Shown here: positions 32,955-64,000 of the stretch, piece by piece
How positions within the stretch are numbered: the first letter of the stretch is position 1
Layout of the letters: every line of letters begins with the position of its first letter
NCBI RefSeq assembly: GCF_001553545.1
Contig: NZ_CP014227.1
Span: forward strand, 434,001-498,000
DNA from: Capnocytophaga haemolytica
GTDB taxonomy: Bacteria > Bacteroidota > Bacteroidia > Flavobacteriales > Flavobacteriaceae
Length of the DNA: 64,000 nucleotides
Reading direction: 5' to 3'
Position numbers and translations under genes: made by a program
The notes under the pieces: model-generated
What the model was told of the DNA's origin: nothing
Databases searched by the model: none
Seen by the model: the letters and a program-made list of their open reading frames with translations, nothing else

Positions 32955-34330
32955 ATGTTTATGGCAAGAAGAATATTTGTAGTGCTACTGGTACTTTGTG
33001 TACTAACTGCGTGTAAGCGCGGAAGTGGTGATGGCAAAGGAGAGCTTGTAGGCGTTAAGGGTAAGGCTTGGAAACAGCCGCGTCCTTACGGTATGACGCT
33101 GATTCCGAGTGGTTCATTCATTATGGGTAGTTCCGATGATGATAAGACTGCGAGTTTTAATGCTACGGTGAAAACTGTGAGCGTTGGTTCATTTTATATG
33201 GACGAGACCGAAATTACGAATAGCGAGTATCGTCAGTTTGTGAATTGGGTACGTGATTCAATTATCCGTACACAATTGGCAGATATGGCTGAGCAGACAG
33301 GGCAACCCCTGGTAGTGGAGGAGTAGGCGAATATGCTTACTTGGACTCTAACAGTGAGAAGCTCAATGCATATCAGCAATATCTGCAAAATACTTACGGA
33401 GATGAGAAAGCGCGTAAGCTCAATAAAAAGGTCGCCTTGATTTGGGACGTCAATAAATTCCCAGATGAGTACTATTCAGAGGTGATGGATAAGCTCTATT
33501 TACCTGAAGAAGAGGCTTATAACGGGAAGCGTATTATGGACGTGGACAAATTCGTATTCAAGTATCAATGGTTGGATATGGAGAAAGCAGCACGAGCAAA
33601 AGGTAACCGAAAAGACTTCATTAAGGAAGAGTTAGTGAAGGTGTATCCAGACACTACTGTTTGGATCCGTGACTTTAATTACTCTTACAATGAGCCTATG
33701 CACAATGATTATTTTTGGCACGAGGCTTATGGAGACTATCCAGTAGTAGGGGTAAGTTGGATTCAAGCAAAGGCTTTCTGTGAATGGAGAACCTTGAACA
33801 AGAACTCTTACCAAAAATCAAAAGGAGATTATACTGTAAACTCTTTCCGACTTCCTATTGAATCAGAATGGGAATACGCAGCACGTGGAGGTCTTCAAGG
33901 AGCTACTTATCCTTGGGGAGGTCCGTATACTACGGATGATAGAGCTTGTTTCTTAGCAAACTTTAAACCGATGCGTGGTGACTATGCTTCAGATAATGCT
34001 TTATACACAGTAGAAGCTAAATCGTACGAACCCAATGGATACAACCTCTATAATATGGCAGGTAACGTATCGGAATGGACAAACACTTCGTATGATCCGA
34101 ACTCTTATGAATATATGTCAACATTGAACCCTAACGTACTTGACGATAGTAACAAGCGTAAAGTGATCCGTGGAGGTTCGTGGAAAGACGTTGCTTTTAT
34201 GTTGCAAGTAAATACCCGTGATTACGAATATCAAGATTCAGCACGTAGTTATATCGGTTTCCGTACCGTACAAGATTTTATGGGTATTAGTGACAAGCAA
34301 AAGAGTAAATCACCAAGAGGTTACAGATAA
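32955..34330 (+). pseudogene. gldK: gldK, gliding/T9SS lipoprotein, frameshifted in this sequence
   Basis: GldK is an outer membrane lipoprotein that forms a periplasmic ring with GldN in the type IX secretion system. Two frames together give a normal-length protein of about 458 residues. The first (32955-33326) has the lipobox LTAC and the FGE/sulfatase-modifying-like fold start GMTLIPSGSFIMGSSDDD and DETEITNSEYRQF. The second (downstream of about 33311) continues with GSGGVGEYAYLDS, DYPVVGVSWIQAKAFCEWR, RLPIESEWEYAARGG and the closing RGGSWKD...IGFRTVQD. The break lies at a C4 tract at 33306-33309; one more C would restore QPPGSGGVGEY. gldLMN downstream are intact. The lesion is either a real mutation or a sequencing deletion. 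Confidence 0.9.
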
Positions 34331-34392: not shown

Positions 34393-35064
34393 ATGGCAAC
34401 AGCTAGTAAATCAAGAAAACAGTTTTTTAACTTAGTTTATGGTCTAGGTGCATCAGTAGTAATTTTAGGGGCACTTTTCAAATTAACCCATATGGAATTG
34501 GGACCATTAAACGGTAGTATATTATTGACAATAGGTATGGTGACTGAAGCTATCATCTTTGCGATTTCAGCCTTTGAACCAGTTGATGAAGAATACGATT
34601 GGTCATTAGTATATCCTGAATTAGCAGGAGGAGCAGCCTCACGTCGTCAAAACAACTTATTGTTACAAAACCAACAAGAAGACAAGATCCTCAGAGAGTC
34701 GTTGTCAGAAAAGTTGGATGGTATTTTAGCAGAGGCGCGTATTGATGCTAACTTAATGCGTTCATTGGGCAAATCAATTGAAAACTTTGCTGGTGCAAGT
34801 AGAGAAATTGCTCCTGTGGCAAATGCGATGGTTGCAGCTCACAAATACGGTGAAGAGCTTTCAACAGCAGCCTCTAACTTAGAGTCGCTAAATAGCTTAT
34901 ATAAATTACAATTAGAAAGAACAGAAAGACAAGTATCTGCACAAGCAGGTGTTGTTGATAACTTAGATTCACTAAACCAACAAATGCTTTCGTTCAAAGA
35001 CAATTTAAGATCTTTAAACACTATCTATGGAGGAATGTTATCTGCGATGGGCGGTGCGAGATAA
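34393..35064 (+). CDS. gldL: Gliding motility / T9SS motor protein GldL
   Basis: A 223-residue inner membrane protein. Two transmembrane helices near the N-terminus (FFNLVYGLGASVVILGALFKLTH and GSILLTIGMVTEAIIFAISAF) are followed by EPVDEEYDWSLVYPEL and a long cytoplasmic helical tail rich in Asn, Ser and Leu. With GldM it forms the proton-driven rotary motor of the type IX system; the Glu in the second helix (VTEAIIF) is the expected proton-path residue. The length fits the family. It sits in the canonical gldKLMN order, 62 bp after gldK. Confidence 0.96.
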   Translation: MATASKSRKQFFNLVYGLGASVVILGALFKLTHMELGPLNGSILLTIGMVTEAIIFAISAFEPVDEEYDWSLVYPELAGGAASRRQNNLLLQNQQEDKILRESLSEKLDGILAEARIDANLMRSLGKSIENFAGASREIAPVANAMVAAHKYGEELSTAASNLESLNSLYKLQLERTERQVSAQAGVVDNLDSLNQQMLSFKDNLRSLNTIYGGMLSAMGGAR

Positions 35065-35102: not shown

Positions 35103-36686
35103 ATGGCAGGTGGTAAATTAAGTCCAAGACAGAAGATGATCAACCTTATGTATTTGGTGTTCATTGCAATGATGGCATTAAATATGGGCAAGGAAGTATT
35201 GAATGCATTTGGGTTGGTAAATCAAAAGTTTGAATCGTCAAACAAGAGAGCAACAGAAGTTAATGACGCAGCGCTTCAAGCGTTGGCGATGAAGGCTTCT
35301 GAGAGTCCAGATAAGTTTGCTGAGATTTATGATAAATCAAAGCAAATTAAGGAACTATCAAATAATTTTTATTCCTTCATACAAGGGATTAAGGATGATG
35401 TAGAGGATCAGACAGGTCAGAAGGGTGTTCCAGCAGATAAAAAAGATTATGAGGCAATGGATAAGTCTGACTATACAGATGATCTTTTTTTCAAAGGGAA
35501 TGGTGGATATAATACAAAAGGGCAGGAGTTTATTGATCAGATCAATAACTATAGAGAAGGGATATTGAAGATTTTAGGTGATGCTCCTCAATACAAGCAA
35601 TTGGCAGAAAGAGTAAAGGTAAACTTTACGACAGAGCCAGTGAGAAATAAAGATGGCATCAAAGTAAAATGGTTACAATATAACTTTGAAGGTTTCCCTT
35701 ACGTAGCTACATTGGCAAAACTTTCAATGATGCAGTCTGATATCCGCTCTACTGAGCAAGGGTTTTTTGATGACGCTTTAAAAGAAAGTTATAAAACAAC
35801 AGCTTCAATGACTAACTATACTACTTTGCTTGAACAAAGTAAAGGAGCATATTATCAAGGAGAAAAGTTTGATGGGGCTATTGTACTGGGTCGTAAAGAT
35901 GCAACTACACGTCCTAATGAAGTAGATTTATCTTTAGACGGCAGAAAGTTGGGAGCTAGTGATTTTACTATTGAAGATGGTCGTGTGAAATTGAATATTT
36001 CAGCAGGCAATACAGGTGACCACAAAATCACTGGTAACCTTTATTTTGACGAAGATGGTAAGCGTATTGCTGTGCCTGTAGCTCAGTCATTCTCAACTAT
36101 TCCAAAACCAAACTCGGCAGTAATATCAGCTGATAAGATGAATGTAGTGTATCGTGGTGTTGCTAACCCTATCACTATTTCAATGCCAGGGGTTCCTGAT
36201 AATAAAATATCAGCTTCAGCTGCAGGTTTGTCTAAAGCTTCAGGTGCAGGTGCTTGGGTAATGCGTCCAGGGGCTGGTAGAGAGGTTACTATTCACGTAA
36301 CAGGTGAACTTGGTGGGCAGAAATTTAGCTCTTCTAAGATGTTCCGTATTAAGAGTATCCCTCGTCCTGTAACAAGTATGGGTGGACAAATAGGTACAGC
36401 TAAATTGCCTAAGGCGAATGTAGCAGTATTACCAGTTTCAGCTGTATTAGAAGACTTTGATTTCGACTTGAAATTACAAGTAAACGAATTTAAAGTATTC
36501 GTTCCAGGTCAGCCAAGTATTGTAGTTCGTGGCTCTAATAAGTTCAATGAGCAAGCTAGAGCAGCTGTACTACGTGCGAGAAGAGGTGATAAGATTCAAA
36601 TATTTGACGTAAAGGCAAGTATCGTAGGTAATTCAACATTGAAATTACCACCACTTACACCTATCGTTATTGAAATAACAAACTAA
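35103..36686 (+). CDS. gldM: Gliding motility / T9SS motor protein GldM
   Basis: A 527-residue protein with the family start GGKLSPRQKMINLMYLVFIAMMALNMGKEVLNAFG, a single N-terminal transmembrane helix. A large periplasmic part follows, with a helical first domain (to about 225) and beta-rich domains (for example KPNSAVISADKMNVVYRGVANPITISMPGVP and the C-terminal FKVFVPGQPSIVVRGS). It is the shaft of the GldLM motor and reaches to the GldKN ring. The length is typical. gldN begins 11 bases later. Confidence 0.96.
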   Translation: MAGGKLSPRQKMINLMYLVFIAMMALNMGKEVLNAFGLVNQKFESSNKRATEVNDAALQALAMKASESPDKFAEIYDKSKQIKELSNNFYSFIQGIKDDVEDQTGQKGVPADKKDYEAMDKSDYTDDLFFKGNGGYNTKGQEFIDQINNYREGILKILGDAPQYKQLAERVKVNFTTEPVRNKDGIKVKWLQYNFEGFPYVATLAKLSMMQSDIRSTEQGFFDDALKESYKTTASMTNYTTLLEQSKGAYYQGEKFDGAIVLGRKDATTRPNEVDLSLDGRKLGASDFTIEDGRVKLNISAGNTGDHKITGNLYFDEDGKRIAVPVAQSFSTIPKPNSAVISADKMNVVYRGVANPITISMPGVPDNKISASAAGLSKASGAGAWVMRPGAGREVTIHVTGELGGQKFSSSKMFRIKSIPRPVTSMGGQIGTAKLPKANVAVLPVSAVLEDFDFDLKLQVNEFKVFVPGQPSIVVRGSNKFNEQARAAVLRARRGDKIQIFDVKASIVGNSTLKLPPLTPIVIEITN

Positions 36687-36697
36687 GAATAAGTATT

Positions 36698-37600
36698 ATG
36701 CTAAACTTAAAGAATGTAATTATATTACTGCTTTTTGTACTTGCTGGTCAAGTTTCATTTGCACAGATAAATATTTTAAATGCAAAATCAGCAAATGAAA
36801 TAGGTGTTAAGACAGAAGCACAGATAGAAGCAGATAATGATAAACCTCTACCTTATGGATATGTAGATGATAGAGATATCCTTTGGTCAGTAGAAGTATG
36901 GGAGGTAATTGATTTGAACGAAAGGGCTAACTTTCCTTTGCTTTTCCCTACTGATACGTTAGAGATTGATGCTTATCGCCGTTCATTATATGATGTTCTG
37001 TTAAAAAACATCAAGAATGGTAAGATAAAAGATGTGTATCTTGATTCTTACTTCACTCAGACTAAAACTGTTGAAGATATTGAAGCTTCTATGTCAAAAG
37101 TAGATACTTTGGATATTGGATATGAGCAATTGAATTCTGGTGAAGCTCTTTCTCCTGAATATATTACTAGAAGAAACTTAGAGTCAGCAGATATAGCACA
37201 ATATCACATTAGAGGTATTTGGTATTTTGACAAACGACAAGGAGAATTGAAGTATCGTTTGTTGGCATTGGCACCAGTAGCACCAGATGTTAACTTTATT
37301 GACTCTGATGATTCAACAATGTCAGCTTTAGTTCCTTTGTTCTGGGTGTTCTATCCGCAAGTGCGCGACATTCTTCACGAGGCTAAAACCTTTAACAGAA
37401 AGAATGATGCTCGACCAATGTCATTTGACCACCTTTTAAATGCCCGAATGTTTAGTTCGGTAATTTATAAGGAAGCTAATGTATATGGAGATAGAAAGAT
37501 CAAAGAGTATCTACCAGATAATGCACTCTTCCAGTTGTTAGAATCTGATAAGATCAAACAAAAGATCCGTGATAGAGAGCAAGATATGTGGGCGAACTAA
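36698..37600 (+). CDS. gldN: Gliding motility / T9SS protein GldN
   Basis: A 300-residue periplasmic protein with a signal peptide ending VSFAQ (about residue 22). Family segments are visible: PYGYVDDRDILWSVEVWEVIDLNERANFPLLFP, YHIRGIWYFDKRQGELKYRLLALAPVAPDV and LVPLFWVFYPQVRDILHEAKTFN. GldN joins GldK in the outer-membrane-associated ring. It is the last gene of the cluster and is followed by a long stem terminator. Confidence 0.96.
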   Translation: MLNLKNVIILLLFVLAGQVSFAQINILNAKSANEIGVKTEAQIEADNDKPLPYGYVDDRDILWSVEVWEVIDLNERANFPLLFPTDTLEIDAYRRSLYDVLLKNIKNGKIKDVYLDSYFTQTKTVEDIEASMSKVDTLDIGYEQLNSGEALSPEYITRRNLESADIAQYHIRGIWYFDKRQGELKYRLLALAPVAPDVNFIDSDDSTMSALVPLFWVFYPQVRDILHEAKTFNRKNDARPMSFDHLLNARMFSSVIYKEANVYGDRKIKEYLPDNALFQLLESDKIKQKIRDREQDMWAN

Positions 37601-37700: not shown

Positions 37701-37732
37701 TTTGCACACTATAGATAATAGTTGTAATTTTG
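37701..37732 (+). promoter_or_regulatory. Promoter of the SusR-like regulator gene
   Basis: TTTG at 37701-37704, a 20-bp spacer, then TAATTTTG at 37725-37732. Transcription would start near 37740, so the coding start must be downstream: the ATG at 37760, not the TTG at 37730. Confidence 0.7.
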
Positions 37733-37759
37733 CTCCAATTTCACAGCCACTTCTTTTAT

Positions 37760-39421
37760 ATGATAAATAGACACTTACTTATTACGTATTTATTACTATT
37801 ATTTCTATATATACCTGCGCAATCACAGGAAGGGAAATTTCTTGTAGAACTAAAAGAACTCCTCAAAGAAAAAGACAAATATACCACTGAGAAGCAACAT
37901 CATATTGATGAAATCAGGCGGATGCTCCTTGTACCCGATATGACCCCTGAGCAACACTATGCGGTGAATAAGCAGCTCAGTGATGCCTATAAGACGTACC
38001 TCTCCGACTCGGCTGTACACTACGTAAAGAAGAACCTTGCCATTGCTGAGCAGTTAGGACGTGCCGACTGGTGCAATGATGCACGTTTTGAACTTACCTC
38101 GCTGTACACGGTTGAGGGTAATTACTTGGACGCCTTTGCAGAACTGCAAGCAATGGATGAGGCGAGCTTATCTCCTCAGGAGCTTATCCGTTATTATGAT
38201 GCTTACCAACTGCTCTACCACAACTATGCATTTAACAATCCGAATGCGGCAGTGTATATTGCCAAAAGCAAAGCATACCACGATAAGTTATTACCACTAT
38301 TAGACAAAAATAGCACCCACTATCTGCTGCTCTATGCCGATAGACTTGCAGATGAAGGGCACTTTGCGAAGGCAGCTGACCTACTGCTGCATAAGCTACA
38401 AGAGCTTCATACCGATGAGCACGAAAAGGCAGTACTGGCCTACGTACTCGGCACTATCTACAAGAAGGCGGGCAACACGGATAAAGAGATCGAATACTTT
38501 GCTATCTCAGCCTCTTGCGACATCAAGAATGCCATTAAAGAGAACGCCTCAATGCGGCAGTTGGCAAGTGCCCTTTACGCCACAGGCAATGTGGAAGATG
38601 CTTATCTATGCATACGCTCCTCAATGGAAGACGCCATCTTTTGCAATGCTAACCTGCGCTCTGATGAGGTGTTGCAGATATTCCCCATTATCGAAGGGGC
38701 TTATCAAGAGCGTGTACAGCAGCATAACACCGACCTCAGGTGGGCATTGGCAGCAGTAGGCTTAGTAACTCTATGCTTAGCCTTAGCGGTCTTTTTTGTA
38801 TATAGGCAGATGAAGCGCATTGCTAAGATACGCCGTGAGCTTGCTCATAAGAATCGCGATTTGGAAGAACTTAACGGGCATCTGCAAGCAGTGGTGAGCG
38901 AGCTCAACAGCACCAATACTGCCCTCTCTGAGGTAAACGCTGAGCTCTCAGAGACTAACAATGTGAAGGAGGCTTACATAGCACAATTCTTCAACCTGTG
39001 TTCAATGTATATTGATAAGTTAGAAAAGTTTCAACACGCGCTTTACAAAAAGGCAAAGGATAAAAACAACGACGAGCTGCTGAAGATGTTGCGCTCTAAT
39101 GAGATGATTGATGCAGAACTCAAGCAGCTATACCGCCTCTTTGATGAGGTATTCTTGCATCTCTATCCTAACTTTGTGGAGGCGTTTAATGCGCTCTTAC
39201 TTCCGGAGGCGCGTTTCACTGTAAAGCCTAACGAGATGAACCCTGAGTTGCGCATCTTTGCACTCATACGCTTAGGCTTTACCGATAGTGCCAAGATAGC
39301 TTCCTTCTTGCACTACTCAATGAACACCATCTATAACTACCGTACCCGCGTGCGCAACAAGGCACTTGTGCCTCGTGAGGAGTTTGAAGCAAGGGTGATG
39401 AGGATTGGTAGAAACTTATAA
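37760..39421 (+). CDS. SusR-like membrane-spanning transcriptional regulator (DUF6377-type)
   Basis: A 553-residue protein. Start at the ATG at 37760, because an earlier TTG lies inside the promoter. Signal sequence (LLITYLLLLFLYIPAQSQ), a periplasmic helical/TPR-like sensor part (to about 325), one transmembrane helix (LAAVGLVTLCLALAVFFVY, about 333-351), a cytoplasmic coiled coil (ELAHKNRDLEELNGHLQ..., about 360-400) and a C-terminal domain with a LuxR-like helix-turn-helix (TDSAKIASFLHYSMNTIYNYRTRVRNKA). SusR-type regulators sense oligosaccharide in the periplasm and bind DNA from the membrane to activate susC promoters. It lies directly upstream of a SusC operon in the same direction, with a 430-bp gap that carries repeat motifs. 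Confidence 0.85.
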   Translation: MINRHLLITYLLLLFLYIPAQSQEGKFLVELKELLKEKDKYTTEKQHHIDEIRRMLLVPDMTPEQHYAVNKQLSDAYKTYLSDSAVHYVKKNLAIAEQLGRADWCNDARFELTSLYTVEGNYLDAFAELQAMDEASLSPQELIRYYDAYQLLYHNYAFNNPNAAVYIAKSKAYHDKLLPLLDKNSTHYLLLYADRLADEGHFAKAADLLLHKLQELHTDEHEKAVLAYVLGTIYKKAGNTDKEIEYFAISASCDIKNAIKENASMRQLASALYATGNVEDAYLCIRSSMEDAIFCNANLRSDEVLQIFPIIEGAYQERVQQHNTDLRWALAAVGLVTLCLALAVFFVYRQMKRIAKIRRELAHKNRDLEELNGHLQAVVSELNSTNTALSEVNAELSETNNVKEAYIAQFFNLCSMYIDKLEKFQHALYKKAKDKNNDELLKMLRSNEMIDAELKQLYRLFDEVFLHLYPNFVEAFNALLLPEARFTVKPNEMNPELRIFALIRLGFTDSAKIASFLHYSMNTIYNYRTRVRNKALVPREEFEARVMRIGRNL

Positions 39422-57317: not shown

Positions 57318-58871
57318 TTATCTTGGGTTATCTTTCATACCTGCCGCAACCACATCTGCTGGGATGGGGAAGGTACGTCTATTATCATCTTTGGTAAGTA
57401 CGGCTACGATCTTTGAAGAGCCGTCTAAGTGCAACTCGTGGCGATAGATCTCTATACCATAGCGGCGAATGTCATACCATCGCAACCCTTCATTGAGCGT
57501 CAAAAGACGGCGACATTGCAGCAGACAGTGCAATAAGCACTCTTGTGTTTCATCTGCAATAGTAAAAGAAGGTGACAGTCGTTTCTTTTGATTTGCACGG
57601 CTTACAAGCGTGTTAGTGTCATAGCTCGAGTAAGGCAAACGTTTGTAAGTATTAACAACTCTTGCTTCATCTAATTGATCTCCTTGTTCTAAATAGTTGC
57701 CAAGGAATAGGTTCATATCCTTCAATCCTTCGGTGTTCTTACCTTGTAAGATTTTTGCCCCAGCACGAACTAAGAGCGTTTCTTCTGTATTGAAAAGCAC
57801 TAATTGTGTTTTATTTGGATAGACAGGGTATTTGGTATAAACATAGCGGTCTTTTTCTGCATCTGCCTTGTAAAACACTTTGTCCTTGTATTCGTTTACC
57901 CAAGGGTTACCTTCGCTGAGGAAGGTTTCTCACTGTGCCAAAGGTCTGCCGTGAGTGAATCGGAAAGGTGAGTTTTGCTCTAATACTGCATAACCGTTGG
58001 TCTCCACTGCGATAAGCATCAAGTTAGCTTCTACATCATCACGTGTATACTCTTTTGCGTGAGGATCGTCTGCACTGATAGCAGAGAAAGCTTTGTAATT
58101 GCGCAGTGTAGGATTATCTCCAATTGCGTTTGTTGCGTGCTCTTCTGCTTTAGCAAAATCTTGATGATAGAGATAGAAGCGAGCTGCAAAGGCATTTGCT
58201 GCTTTCTTATTAAAGTGGAATTTAGGCACCTTGTAAGAATTGTCGTCAATCAAAGGAAGCCCCTGTTGCAAATCTTCAGCAATCTTTTTGTACACCTCTG
58301 CGACTGTGTTACGAGGTAGTTCAGCTTTAAATTCCTCAAGAGGTATTTCTACGTAAGGCACACCTAAATCCGTGCTACTCGTTTGAGGGTTATAAGGCTT
58401 CCCAAAGAGATTTACCAGCACAAAGTGTGCATAAGCCCGCGACACAAGGGCTTCCCCTAAAGAGGCTTTTAGCTGATCTTGTGTTGCTTTATCCTTTGCC
58501 GTCTTCTGTGATTCCTTTATTGCATTTATTGCTATATTGCAGGTGTATATTACTGAGTAATGATCGTTCCACAACTCACGTAGCCCATCTTTAGTGCCAT
58601 ACTCGTGTAGCTCTTTCTTCCAATAGACAAGTTCTTCAGTAAAGAGATTTCCTCTGCGGTGGTTGATCATATCATCGACATTATCGGAGGATAATTCAGC
58701 AATCACAGCAGGAGTGGTACTCGGATAGGCGTTCACCAGTAGTTTTGCTACCTTATCTGGCGAATCAAGCTCCACTCTACTATCTGGATTCTTATCTAAG
58801 AACTTTTCACAACTTCCCAGTATTAGGAGTATAGTGGCTATGGTAATATATCTTAGTATTTTCATCATCAT
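57318..58871 (-). pseudogene. SusD-family lipoprotein with an in-frame stop
   Basis: The N-terminal part (58871-57933) has a lipobox (LILGSC) and SusD motifs EKFLDKNPDSRVELDSPD and EALVSRAYAHFVLVNLFGKPYNP. It ends in RPLAQ followed by TGA at 57930-57932. Reading on in the same frame gives ETFLSEGNPWVNEYKDK and then the normal SusD C-terminus (FNTEETLLVRAGAKILQG, LTLNEGLRWYDIRRYGIE, RTFPIPADVV). So the gene is full length but cut by a single nonsense codon; a change from TGG (Trp) or CGA (Arg) would explain it. Together the parts are about 517 residues, normal for SusD. Confidence 0.88.
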
Positions 58872-58878
58872 TTTATTT

Positions 58879-61800
58879 TTAAAGTCCTACGCGCAGGCTA
58901 AAGGTGATTTGTTTCTGAGTTGGGATATATGAACTTCCGAGAGCGAGCCGTTCCGGATCCGCTCCATTAAGCTTTTTATCCGCGTAAATCAAGAATAAAT
59001 TAGTAGCTTGCAACTTTAATCCTAAGCGTTTTAGTTTCATCTGCTTGACTGTTTGATTATCAAAGTCATAAGAGAGTGAGATTTCTTTAAGTCTAATAAA
59101 ATCACCTCTTCCTATACGTACATCTGAATAGTTATAGGCATTATAAGCCTGTCCCAAGTTCACGTTGTAGAAATTTTGGTATTCAGATGCCACAGCAGGG
59201 ATGTTTGTGCGATGCTCATCACCAGGCACCATCTAGCGATCTCTAAACTCTTTAGGGAAGGATAATGACTCATTGGTATACTTTGCTTTGAAAGCGGTGG
59301 GTAGTCGCACCACATTTCCAAAGGCATAAGTAAACAGCACATTCAGTGAAAGACCTTTGTATTTGAATAGGTTGCCAAAGCTACCTTGATCAGTAGGCTT
59401 AGTGGTGCCTGAGTATTTTAAGAAGTCTAAGCCTTTACGCAAGTCCATACGAATTCCGTCAATAGTTGTAGAGCCGTCAGCATTCTCAAAAGTAGGTAAG
59501 CCATCACCTGTCAGCCCTCTAAAAGGAATAGAGAAAATTGCTTCCACAGGATAGCCTTGCTTGGAGAACCCACTGCCTGAGACCATTTCAGAGACACTTG
59601 CATCTACGTATAGCTTAGTGATTTTATTCTCATTCTTGTTGTAGATGAAAGTTGTTGTCCACTCAAAGTCCTTTGTTTTGATGTTTTTAGTCTGCAAGGT
59701 CAATTCTGCACCCCAAGCCTTCATTTCTGCTACATTTCCCTTGCGGATGATGACCCCATTAAGTCCTTGTGTTGGGCTATTTCCTACCAAGTTGTAGTTG
59801 TTGCGATGATACCATTCAGCGGTAAGGTTAATGCGGTTTTTTAAGAAGCCCATTTGGGTGCCTATGTTGATCTCTTTGTTTTTCTCGTAAGTAAGGTTAT
59901 GGTTGGCAAGTTCGCTTATCTTCAAGACAAGCTCACGTGTGCGCTCATTACTACGCCAAGGCAGATCGCCTATGAGTTTATTGAGTGAATTGGTAACAGA
60001 AGGGAATTGAGGTGTAACCCCAAAAGAGGCTTTTGCAGACATACTTGAGAGTATGTTTTGTTTCTTAAAGAAAGGTTCTTGAGCGATATTCCAAGCTAAG
60101 GATATGTTCCAAGTGGGCATCCAGCGGATGTAATCTGATTTGCCAAATCTGTTGGTGCCATCATATCGCAAAATACCGCTGAGTGTATACTTACCTGCAA
60201 ATTCATAAGAGGCATTTCCCAAAAAAGCCTACGTTGCGCGAGGTAGTACGCTCAATTGTATAATAGCTCTGTGATTTCTCTTGCAACTGCTTAAAAGCTT
60301 CATAAGAGAAATAGCCCATATCTCCCAAGCCATAAATCACCCCATAATCAATAGTTGAATTGTTGTTGCGATAGGTATCGTCAGCCTCTGCTCCAGCCAG
60401 TATATTTACTGTGTGTAGCTTATCAAAAGTGTTGTGATAATTAAGTGTTGCACGGAAATCCTTGCGGTTCAGCGTCCTATTTACATTGGTGAGGAAGCCC
60501 CCTTCGGGCAGTACAGTACGCCTCTCATCATAAGGGTCATAGGGGTCCTCATAGAGGAATTCATTGTGGTTTATAATCCCTTTGGAACTCATTTCGCGAT
60601 AAGCACGTGCGTAGTTAGAGTTCTCTGTTTTTGTCTTGATGATGGAGGTTCCTTGGTAGCGTATAGCTCCCAAAGCAGTAGCTTCTAATTTAGGAGTGAT
60701 CTTCCACGATAGTTTAGCACGCAGCCTTATGTCAGCTACATTCATATCTGAGTAGTTGTTCTCAAACTCATCAAAGATATTCATCAGCGTATAACGATAA
60801 GGATAGTGTGCCTTAGGGTCGAGCATACGTGAAGCATTCATCGCATACGAATAAGGATTTAAGTCCATTGATGATTTTACTTTGTCAGTAAGTGGATCAA
60901 TGTCTCCAGGGGTATGTTTTTCGCGGTATTCGCCATTTACATTTACGTTCAGCGTCCAGTTCTTGTGTAACTTGTAATTTGCATTGAGGTTACCACTGTA
61001 TCAATCTTGCTTGCTGTATTTCATCCAACCTGGGTCAGAGAGTACGGATACAGAGGCGTAGTATGAAGTCTTGTCAGTACCTGTGGAAAGACTTACAGAA
61101 TGCTGCTGCATTATAGAAGACTGGAAAAGCCTATTGAACCAATTGGTATTGCGCAGTGAAGCACGCCTTAGGTACTCTCCCTTCGCCTCAGGAGTGTTCT
61201 TCAACAGGAAGCTGCCATCAGGGGCTGCAGAATTGATTTGGTCGTACATACGCCACATCTCACCTGCTTTATCACTCCCTACCAATTGCTCATAGCTAAA
61301 CCACCCTCGGCGCATCATTTCCATATAGAGATCCATCTGCTCCTGCGAGTTCATAATATTAAAATCGCTGTACATTGGTATCAGCCTATAGGTAGATTCA
61401 TTTGTGTAAGAGATACTGCTACTTCCTTTGCTACCCTTGCGTGTAGTGACTTCGATCACCCCTGAGATGGCTCTTGGACCGTAGATAGCAGTTGCTGAGG
61501 CATCCTTTAGCACCCTAAATCCCGAGATGTCATCAGCACTAAGCCCCCTAATGCCGAGGCAAGTAAGGTTTTAGCATCTGAGGAAGAAAGTGCTCCAGGG
61601 TCTAATGGCACATCGTCGTCTAAGATGACGCCATCTACCACCCATAAGGGTTTAGCAGTCCCCGTGATAGAGGTTGCCCCTCGCATATTGGTGCTTGCTA
61701 CGCCTTCTCCTTTGGGCTTCTGAGCTTCTGCCTCGCTGAGCAATACTACGTTCAGGGTTATTCCTTTTACTGTTTGCTCCTGAGATTGCATCCCTGTTAG

Positions 61801-62004
61801 GGAAAAGACAAGGATATCCCCTTCCTTTGCAGCGATGGAAAAGTGTCCATCTAAATCAGTCTGAGTTTTCTCCGCAGTATTTTTAATATGTATTGTAACG
61901 CCCGCTAATGCCTTCCCTTGGGTATCTTTTACAGTCCCACTAATGGTTGGTTGCTGAGCGTGAGCCAAGTGGCTGAGCCCCAAGAAGAGGACCATAAGCC
62001 ACAT
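58879..62004 (-). pseudogene. SusC-family TonB-dependent receptor with four lesions
   Basis: The whole length (about 1040 residues) is recognisable: signal peptide (LGLSHLAHAQQ), carboxypeptidase-like domain (ISGTVKDTQGKALAGVTIHIKNT), plug (LKDASATAIYGPRAISGV) and barrel ending QITFSLRVGL. It is broken four times: a -1 frameshift at a G5 tract (minus strand, 61544-61548), where GGLSADDISGFRVLKD would follow if one G were added; an in-frame TGA at 61001-61003 (KQD*YSGN); a +1 frameshift in the TTTTTTGGGAAA tract around 60214-60226; and an in-frame TAG at 59233-59235, where a conserved Trp is expected (DR*MVPGDEH). Its promoter still looks good. Confidence 0.88.
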
Positions 62005-62044
62005 CTGTAATCTCCACCTTATATTTCTTTCGGTTATTTTTCGG

Positions 62045-62076
62045 CAAAGCTACGAAATTTTATAATACGAAGCAAA
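62045..62076 (-). promoter_or_regulatory. Intact-looking promoter of the broken SusC locus
   Basis: On the minus strand TTTG (62076-62073), a 20-bp spacer, then TAGCTTTG (62052-62045), 40 bp before the pseudogene start. Confidence 0.65.
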
Positions 62077-63028: not shown

Positions 63029-64000
63029 TTAATTTATGACCATTTTGGCGGCGATGACGTCCTTATCGGCTTGGACGATTACGATGTAGTCGCCAGCGGA
63101 GAGGGTAAGGGAGTTGGTGAGGATCTTGAAGTGCTCTTCGGCGGGGAAGTCTTTGTTGAAGAGCTCTTGTCCTAAGATGTTGAATATACGAACGTTGATA
63201 GGACTTTTCTCGGTCATCTCGACTTTGATGTAGGGGGCAGTGCCTCTGCCTGCTGGGTTGGGCACTACCAGCACACTGATGCGCTTGTGAAAATCGTCGC
63301 TGTTTCCGATACCGATCCGATCTTTCTCCGTCCAGAATTTTTTGTAGACGCGCTTGGTGCAACCGCCGAGTGTGCCTTGAAGCCCGATGGTGTAAACGCC
63401 CTCCTTGGGAAAACGGATCTCAGCTTCACGATTTTGCTGTGAAATCATTTCAACTCCCTCAGGTAGAAGCCATTGCTCGGAGTCAATGCGTTTTGAGATG
63501 TCGATGAGTTTGAGGGTGTAATCGTAATAAGAGGTGGTGGCAGCGAGGAAATCCATCTCGAAAGTCTCGTTTTTCTGCTTTACGGTGAACTGCTTGGCGA
63601 TCTGACAACTCCCTTTGTAAGTGGCTTTTAGGGTGTAAACCCCTGCGAGGGTTGCACTGAAAGTATTGCCAGTGGCGACTTCCTTACCCGTGCTATCAAC
63701 CCAAAGGCAATGAGAGAAATCGGTGTCGCTGACGGTGTATAGGTAGTGGTCGCTTTGGCAAAGGGTTATCTCATCGGGGAAGCTAAACGGGATTTCGGCG
63801 GCGGGCTTTACCTCTATGAGTTCGGTGACGGTGGGGCAGTCGCTCTCATCGCTGAGGACGACCTTATAAGTACCTGCGGTTAAGCCTGTCAACTGCTTTT
63901 TATCGGCGCTAAGGTGCTCAATGATAGGTTTTCCAGTGCTGTCGAACCACTGTATGGAGATGGTGCCTTTGCCGCCAGCAATTTTTAGGGAGATACTCCC
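63029..64000 (-). CDS. C-terminal part of a large secreted SprB-repeat-like protein with T9SS sorting tail
   Basis: The frame is open to the window edge; 323 residues are visible. The first part, GSISLKIAGGKGTISIQWFDS...LTGLTAGTYKVVLSDESDCPTV, has the pattern of a SprB repeat, found in Flavobacteriia surface proteins and gliding adhesins. Then come beta modules (SFPDEITLCQSDHYLYTVSD..., GVYTLKATYKGSCQ) and, at the end, VVPNPAGRGTAPYIKVEM...NVRIFNILGQELFNKDF...LSAGDYIVIVQADKDVIAAKMVI, the shape of a type A T9SS C-terminal domain. It would be exported by the GldKLMN machine and anchored or released at the surface. Size and ligand cannot be judged, because the rest lies outside. Confidence 0.85.
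   Translation of the reverse strand, partial: GSISLKIAGGKGTISIQWFDSTGKPIIEHLSADKKQLTGLTAGTYKVVLSDESDCPTVTELIEVKPAAEIPFSFPDEITLCQSDHYLYTVSDTDFSHCLWVDSTGKEVATGNTFSATLAGVYTLKATYKGSCQIAKQFTVKQKNETFEMDFLAATTSYYDYTLKLIDISKRIDSEQWLLPEGVEMISQQNREAEIRFPKEGVYTIGLQGTLGGCTKRVYKKFWTEKDRIGIGNSDDFHKRISVLVVPNPAGRGTAPYIKVEMTEKSPINVRIFNILGQELFNKDFPAEEHFKILTNSLTLSAGDYIVIVQADKDVIAAKMVIN

What the first reader, a model, noticed from the sequence alone, without database searches (positions are those of the whole stretch)
33300..33330. gldK is frameshifted at a C tract while gldLMN are intact
The two gldK reading frames join perfectly if one C is added to the C4 at 33306-33309 (giving QPPGSGGVGEY). GldK is needed for type IX secretion and gliding in studied Flavobacteriia, so a real lesion would leave this strain unable to glide or export T9SS cargo, including the protein at 63029. 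It could also be a slipped-strand phase switch or a sequencing deletion.
Basis: partly seen in the sequence, partly recalled or inferred. Interest (0 to 1): 0.72.

Follow-up and report, generated by a model that had tools for sequence, protein, structure and literature searches.

The report
Broken gldK copy, probably assembly error
In this Capnocytophaga-like genome the gene for a core part of the gliding and secretion motor is split by a one-base frame change; this looks more like a base-count error at a short C run in the assembly than biology, although a real, recent loss of gliding cannot be excluded without the reads.

Summary
Observation confirmed. gldK lies in two overlapping frames (32955-33326 and 33293-34330) that together match the GldK profile end to end; gldL, gldM and gldN are whole. 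All 19 congeners held and all 80 named loci fetched have one open gldK frame, so the split is private to this record. Both halves remain conserved, and SprA, GldJ, PorV and the T9SS cargo frames found are open. The break is either very recent or not in the cell.

In a 1.2 Mb sample of this genome, five genes with one break each were confirmed: gldK, two sigma-54 activators, a permease and a small protein. Each loses one base net, and each zone where the change must lie holds exactly one G/C run of 4-7 bases. MutS and MutL are intact. I favour residual one-base deletions at G/C runs in the assembly (0.58) over a real recent null allele (0.36). The overall frame-change rate is not significantly above two relatives, so this rests on the signature, which was noticed before it was tested. 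Phase switch and programmed frameshift are poorly supported. Raw reads or re-sequencing would settle it.

The parts
32955..33326 (+). upstream gldK piece: signal peptide with a lipobox-like LTAC (motif recalled) and the start of the FGE-like domain, 123 aa
   Evidence: TIGR03525 positions 2-102; PF03781 positions 4-57
33293..34330 (+). downstream gldK frame, stop to stop, 345 aa; no export signal of its own by eye
   Evidence: TIGR03525 positions 102-408; PF03781 positions 62-254; frame
33293..33326 (+). overlap of the two frames: the only stretch in which a single frame change can lie
33306..33309 (+). run of four C, the only G/C run of four or more in the overlap
34393..35064 (+). gldL, whole
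   Evidence: TIGR03513, 180.7 bits, cut-off 68.3
35103..36686 (+). gldM, whole
   Evidence: TIGR03517, 438.9 bits, cut-off 180
36698..37600 (+). gldN, whole
   Evidence: TIGR03523, 267.8 bits, cut-off 85.9

Best explanation
The living cell most likely has one whole gldK, and the split is a residual one-base deletion at or beside the short C run in this assembly. The record holds a small class of such breaks: conserved genes, one break each, one base lost net, with a G/C run of 4-7 bases in the stretch where the break must lie. Shown: the split, its absence in all relatives examined, the conserved halves, the open frames of the other T9SS parts tested, and the shared signature of five broken genes. 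Inferred: that the signature comes from base calling or consensus building and not from the cell.
For: 0 of 19 congeners and 0 of 80 named loci are split. Both halves keep about 92-93% protein identity to G009 and low dN/dS (0.07-0.09 upstream in six comparisons; 0.02-0.03 downstream in the three of six that are not saturated). SprA, GldJ, PorV and cargo frames of up to 5344 codons are open. Five confirmed single-break genes in the 1.2 Mb sample all lose one base net, and each zone holds exactly one G/C run (4, 6, 5, 4, 7 bases); chance of a run in all five zones about 0.002 (my arithmetic, made after the pattern was seen). Two of the five are sigma-54 activators that break at the same place of the same domain, AAA_lid_14 positions 42|44 and 44|43. 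A/T runs of six or more are six times as common in long frames (672 against 109), but no confirmed break has an A/T run alone. mutS1 and mutL are whole. Long-read-only assemblies most commonly err in homopolymer length (PMC8812927, abstract).
Against: How this genome was sequenced is unknown and no reads were seen. A run of four is short for a homopolymer error. The frame-change rate is not significantly above the two control genomes (3 in 278 kb against 2 in 471 kb, p 0.37). Of the 16 frame-change pairs without a nearby ATG in this genome 5 stay undecided, of the 16 control pairs 8. Frames as long as 5344 codons are whole. The genome has what looks like true decay elsewhere, a SusC/SusD locus with in-frame stops. 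The G/C-run pattern was noticed before it was tested.
Confidence: 0.58

Rival explanations
1. A real, recent one-base deletion: the sequenced isolate is a gldK null. The upstream product is a truncated lipoprotein and the downstream piece has no export signal, so no GldK ring forms and the cell neither glides nor exports T9SS cargo. Such mutants can be selected in culture, for example by phage.
For: In F. [quoted passage not shown] The split is private to this record, and conserved halves fit a very young mutation. The genome carries other real-looking lesions.
Against: It does not account for the same one-base loss beside G/C runs in four other conserved genes, two of them sigma-54 activators at matching places. 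No mismatch-repair defect explains them. No sign of decay in the rest of the T9SS tested.
Confidence: 0.36
2. A phase switch: slippage in the C run turns gldK on and off in part of the population.
For: A run lies in the overlap of the two frames.
Against: The run is four bases, shorter than known contingency tracts (recalled). None of 19 congeners has five C there and the residues vary.
Confidence: 0.03
3. A programmed frameshift: the ribosome changes frame in the overlap and makes whole GldK.
For: The frames overlap and are complementary.
Against: 19 of 19 congeners and 80 of 80 named loci have one frame. No X-XXY-YYZ slippery heptamer (rule recalled) at the run by eye. The stretch 33300-33420 folds no better than shuffled sequence (z -0.44).
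Confidence: 0.02

Closest known systems
GldK/PorK, T9SS ring lipoprotein (TIGR03525)
   Same: Both pieces match the family, in order, next to gldL, gldM and gldN
   Different: Not one open frame in this record, unlike 19 of 19 congeners
Phage-selected gld and spr mutants of Flavobacterium columnare (PMC9233685, passages)
   Same: One-base frame changes in T9SS and gliding genes, some in homopolymers
   Different: There a fish pathogen under known phage selection with tested resistance and colony form; here phenotype and history are unknown
Residual homopolymer-length errors of long-read assemblies (PMC8812927, abstract)
   Same: One base lost, a G/C run in each break zone, conserved genes hit
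   Different: Sequencing method of this record unknown; one of the runs concerned is only four C

Membership tests
GldK/PorK (TIGR03525) | Match to the profile over its length | tested here: met
   Positions 2-102 and 102-408 of 408 in two pieces; only the second is over the cut-off on its own
GldK/PorK (TIGR03525) | Place in a gldK-gldL-gldM-gldN cluster | tested here: met
GldK/PorK (TIGR03525) | One open reading frame | tested here: not met
   Two frames in this record; one frame in 19 of 19 congeners
GldK/PorK (TIGR03525) | Function in gliding and T9SS export | not testable with these tools
   needs the strain
Homopolymer deletion error of an assembly | Several breaks of one kind at runs in conserved genes | tested here: met
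   Five of five confirmed single-break genes: one base lost net, one G/C run in the zone; pattern noticed before it was tested
Homopolymer deletion error of an assembly | Break rate above that of relatives | tested here: inconclusive
   3 in 278 kb against 2 in 471 kb, p 0.37
Homopolymer deletion error of an assembly | Reads disagree with the consensus | not testable with these tools
   no reads held
Phase-variable contingency tract | Run kept in relatives | tested here: not met
   0 of 19 congeners have five or more C there; residues vary
Programmed frameshift | Split kept among relatives | tested here: not met
   0 of 19 congeners, 0 of 80 named loci split
Programmed frameshift | Stimulating RNA structure | tested here: not met
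   z -0.44 for 33300-33420

The most novel reading that the evidence does not exclude
The G/C runs are real, reversible one-base switches in this species that turn off gliding and T9SS (gldK) together with two sigma-54 activators and a permease in part of the population: a dispersed set of contingency loci that sheds surface traits, for instance under phage attack.
Probability: 0.03. Interest if true: 0.65.

Novelty: not a real feature. Interest (0 to 1): 0.15.

Why it matters
If it is an assembly error, annotation would wrongly make this reference genome T9SS-deficient and non-gliding, and would lose two sigma-54 regulators as well. If it is real, the sequenced isolate is a non-gliding, secretion-defective variant and a poor reference for motility and biofilm work.

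Tried and rejected
Mutator strain: mutS1 and mutL are whole and over their cut-offs. Decay of the whole T9SS: not seen in the parts tested, GldL, GldM, GldN, SprA, GldJ, PorV and cargo (two TIGR04183 matches, seven TIGR04131 matches of which six are over the cut-off, none with stops inside); SprE, SprT and the other Gld proteins were not tested. Recombination at the break: the two halves differ in third-position divergence, but so do the same halves between congeners. Shortened long G/C runs: 4 runs of eight or more in 1.2 Mb against 9 in 1.2 Mb of G009 and 1 in 0.4 Mb of G013, too few to use. RNA structure: nothing. Methylation-motif error at the CCTGG beside the run: an idea only, not tested. 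Species name: not settled; nearest named are C. periodontitidis and C. sputigena (92% protein identity over the downstream piece); G009 has the contig length I recall for the C. ochracea type strain.

Rows set aside: of the five G000 candidates, two (near 946,580 and 766,800) were dropped, the first because its upstream piece looks non-coding, the second as low-complexity; neither passes the stricter thresholds. In one search one of two G013 rows (net -7, about 61% identity) was left out of the rate; six G009 rows are one place. Stops inside matches were not used, since many queries are mechanical ORFs that need not be genes. Of the 16 pairs without a nearby ATG in G000: gldK and three more are confirmed (641,078 and 966,770 by one Pfam domain running over both pieces; 971,086 by its G009 homologue), two lie in the SusC-like locus, five have different families on the two sides (534,920; 542,232; 1,173,496; 1,408,922; 1,481,126), five stay undecided (1,008,163; 1,318,306; 1,321,090; 1,396,916; 1,459,411). 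The break near 395,810 came from homology, then from one domain over both pieces. Of the 16 control pairs in G009 and G013, all scanned, none shows one family over both pieces; eight have different families, three a family on one side only, five none, so eight are undecided. Pairs with a nearby ATG (124 in G000, 133 in G009, 53 in G013) were not examined, so counts are lower bounds.

Full report
What was checked. The C4 run is at 33306-33309. gldK is present as two pieces: 32955-33326 (123 aa) and a frame open from 33293 to 34330. The first matches the GldK profile TIGR03525 at positions 2-102, the second at 102-408 with 448.7 bits against a cut-off of 350; gldL, gldM and gldN follow, whole and over their cut-offs. 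Pfam shows one FGE-sulfatase domain running over both pieces (positions 4-57 and 62-254). The two frames share only 34 bases, 33293-33326, where a single frame change must lie.

Relatives. The window lies in a single-contig genome of 2,688,484 bases; the nearest named records are Capnocytophaga periodontitidis and C. sputigena (92% protein identity over the downstream piece). All 19 congeners held have one gldK frame without inner stops (again). Of 80 named loci 77 have one open frame over both pieces; in the other three the alignment only ran past the normal end of the gene. In the DNA alignment of the 19 congeners the residues at the junction vary and none has five or more C there. So neither a kept tract nor a kept split exists, and the lost base cannot be pinned to the run rather than to its edge.

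State of the gene and the system. Protein identity to G009 is 92.3% before and 93.0% after the break. dN/dS against six congeners is 0.07-0.09 for the upstream piece; for the downstream piece it is 0.02-0.03 in three comparisons and saturated in the other three. Third positions differ more downstream than upstream, but this is also so between congeners in four of five pairs. SprA (2392 codons), GldJ (580), PorV (376) and the frames that carry T9SS sorting domains (two TIGR04183, seven TIGR04131, six of the seven over the cut-off; up to 5344 codons) are open. Nothing points to a long-standing loss of the system.

Cell or record? I compared 1.2 Mb of this genome with 1.2 Mb of G009 and 0.4 Mb of G013. 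260 mechanical ORFs of G009, covering 277,826 bases of this genome, gave three frame changes: gldK, a sigma-54 activator near 395,810 and a small protein near 971,100; G013 (80 ORFs, 76,779 bases) showed the first two again. In the other direction there was one place in G009 (near 1,462,343, reached by six queries; 290 ORFs tested from G000, none seen by 206 from G013) and, in G013, two rows from G009 (207 ORFs; net +1 and net -7) and none from G000 (86 ORFs). Leaving out the net -7 row, 3 in 278 kb against 2 in 471 kb is not a significant difference (p 0.37). A scan by codon usage, without a reference, gave 16 frame-change pairs without a nearby ATG in this genome's 1.2 Mb, 8 in G009's 1.2 Mb and 8 in G013's 0.4 Mb, so per base G013 has the most. 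Pfam then showed one domain running over both pieces for gldK, a tryptophan/tyrosine permease near 641,078 and a sigma-54 response regulator near 966,770, three of 16, and for none of the 16 control pairs, eight of which stay undecided.

The common signature. For the five confirmed single-break genes the net shift is the same, one base lost, and the zone in which it must lie (34 to 130 bases) holds exactly one G or C run of four or more: 4, 6, 5, 4 and 7 bases; one zone, that of the small protein, also holds a T6. With 5514 such runs in 1.2 Mb the chance that all five zones hold one is about 0.002 (my arithmetic; the pattern was noticed before it was tested). Two of the five are sigma-54 activators broken at the same place of the same domain, AAA_lid_14, at profile positions 42|44 and 44|43. 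In frames of 300 codons or more, A/T runs of six or more are six times as common as G/C runs of that length (672 against 109), yet no confirmed break has an A/T run alone. mutS1 and mutL are whole, so a mismatch-repair defect is not the reason. The one clear change in G013 is a gain beside an A run and the one in G009 lies by a T run, as expected of ordinary mutation. I read the G/C-only, loss-only pattern as residual homopolymer deletions in the consensus; homopolymer length is the commonest residual error of long-read-only assemblies (PMC8812927, abstract). How this genome was sequenced I do not know.

What speaks for a real lesion. The run in gldK is short; very long frames are whole; and there is likely true decay elsewhere in the window, a SusC/SusD-like locus on the minus strand at 57318-62049. 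There, pieces 61007-61540 and 59248-60216 fall into one frame of 1054-1076 codons in the four closest congeners, while here the locus has two frame changes and in-frame stops at 61001-61003, 59233-59235 and, in the SusD-like gene, 57930-57932 (that the pieces after the last two stops belong to the same genes is inferred from the frame alone). In F. columnare exposed to phage most isolates had gld or spr mutations, several of them one-base frame changes (PMC9233685, passages). A mutation of that kind, fixed in culture shortly before sequencing, would look the same.

If it is real, the mechanism is plain: the upstream product keeps the signal peptide but only the first part of the fold, the downstream piece has no export signal, and the GldK/GldN ring is not built (inferred). 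That GldK is a core ring part, and that T9SS serves gliding and biofilm formation in C. ochracea, is from PMC11705866 and PMC8444969 (passages); the primary papers (Kita 2016, Shrivastava 2013) are not held and are known to me from reference lists and recall.

Literature. Searches for Capnocytophaga + gldK (19 papers), Capnocytophaga + gliding + frameshift (2) and gldK + frameshift (2) list, by title, abstract start and the passages read in three of them (PMC11705866, PMC9233685, PMC5524665), no report of a split gldK in a Capnocytophaga genome. The announcement of twelve complete Capnocytophaga genomes, cited in a review (PMC13413776, passages), is not held, so I could not learn whether this record is one of them.

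Verdict. Observation confirmed; most likely a one-base error of the record (0.58), otherwise a real recent null allele (0.36); phase switch (0.03) and programmed frameshift (0.02) are poorly supported. Low interest until reads are seen.

Noticed in passing
57318-62049, minus strand: A SusC-like and SusD-like (PF14322) pair broken by two frame changes and three in-frame stops; the four closest congeners have one SusC-like frame of 1054-1076 codons.
   Followed up: partly
63029-64000, minus strand: The protein at 63029 is the C-terminal end of a frame of about 1150 codons that runs past the window's end; it carries a T9SS type A sorting domain.
   Followed up: partly
L199:6496-7850 (G000 near 966,770) and L130:15133-16376 (G000 near 395,810): Two sigma-54 activators, each split at the same place of AAA_lid_14 beside a run of seven or six G.
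   Followed up: partly
L143:195-1351 (G000 near 641,078): A tryptophan/tyrosine permease in two frames, PF03222 positions 13-102 and 103-392, with a G4 run in the overlap.
   Followed up: partly
37730-39421, plus strand: Directly after gldN lies a SusR-family glycan utilization regulator (NF058541, 592 bits, cut-off 480).
   Followed up: no
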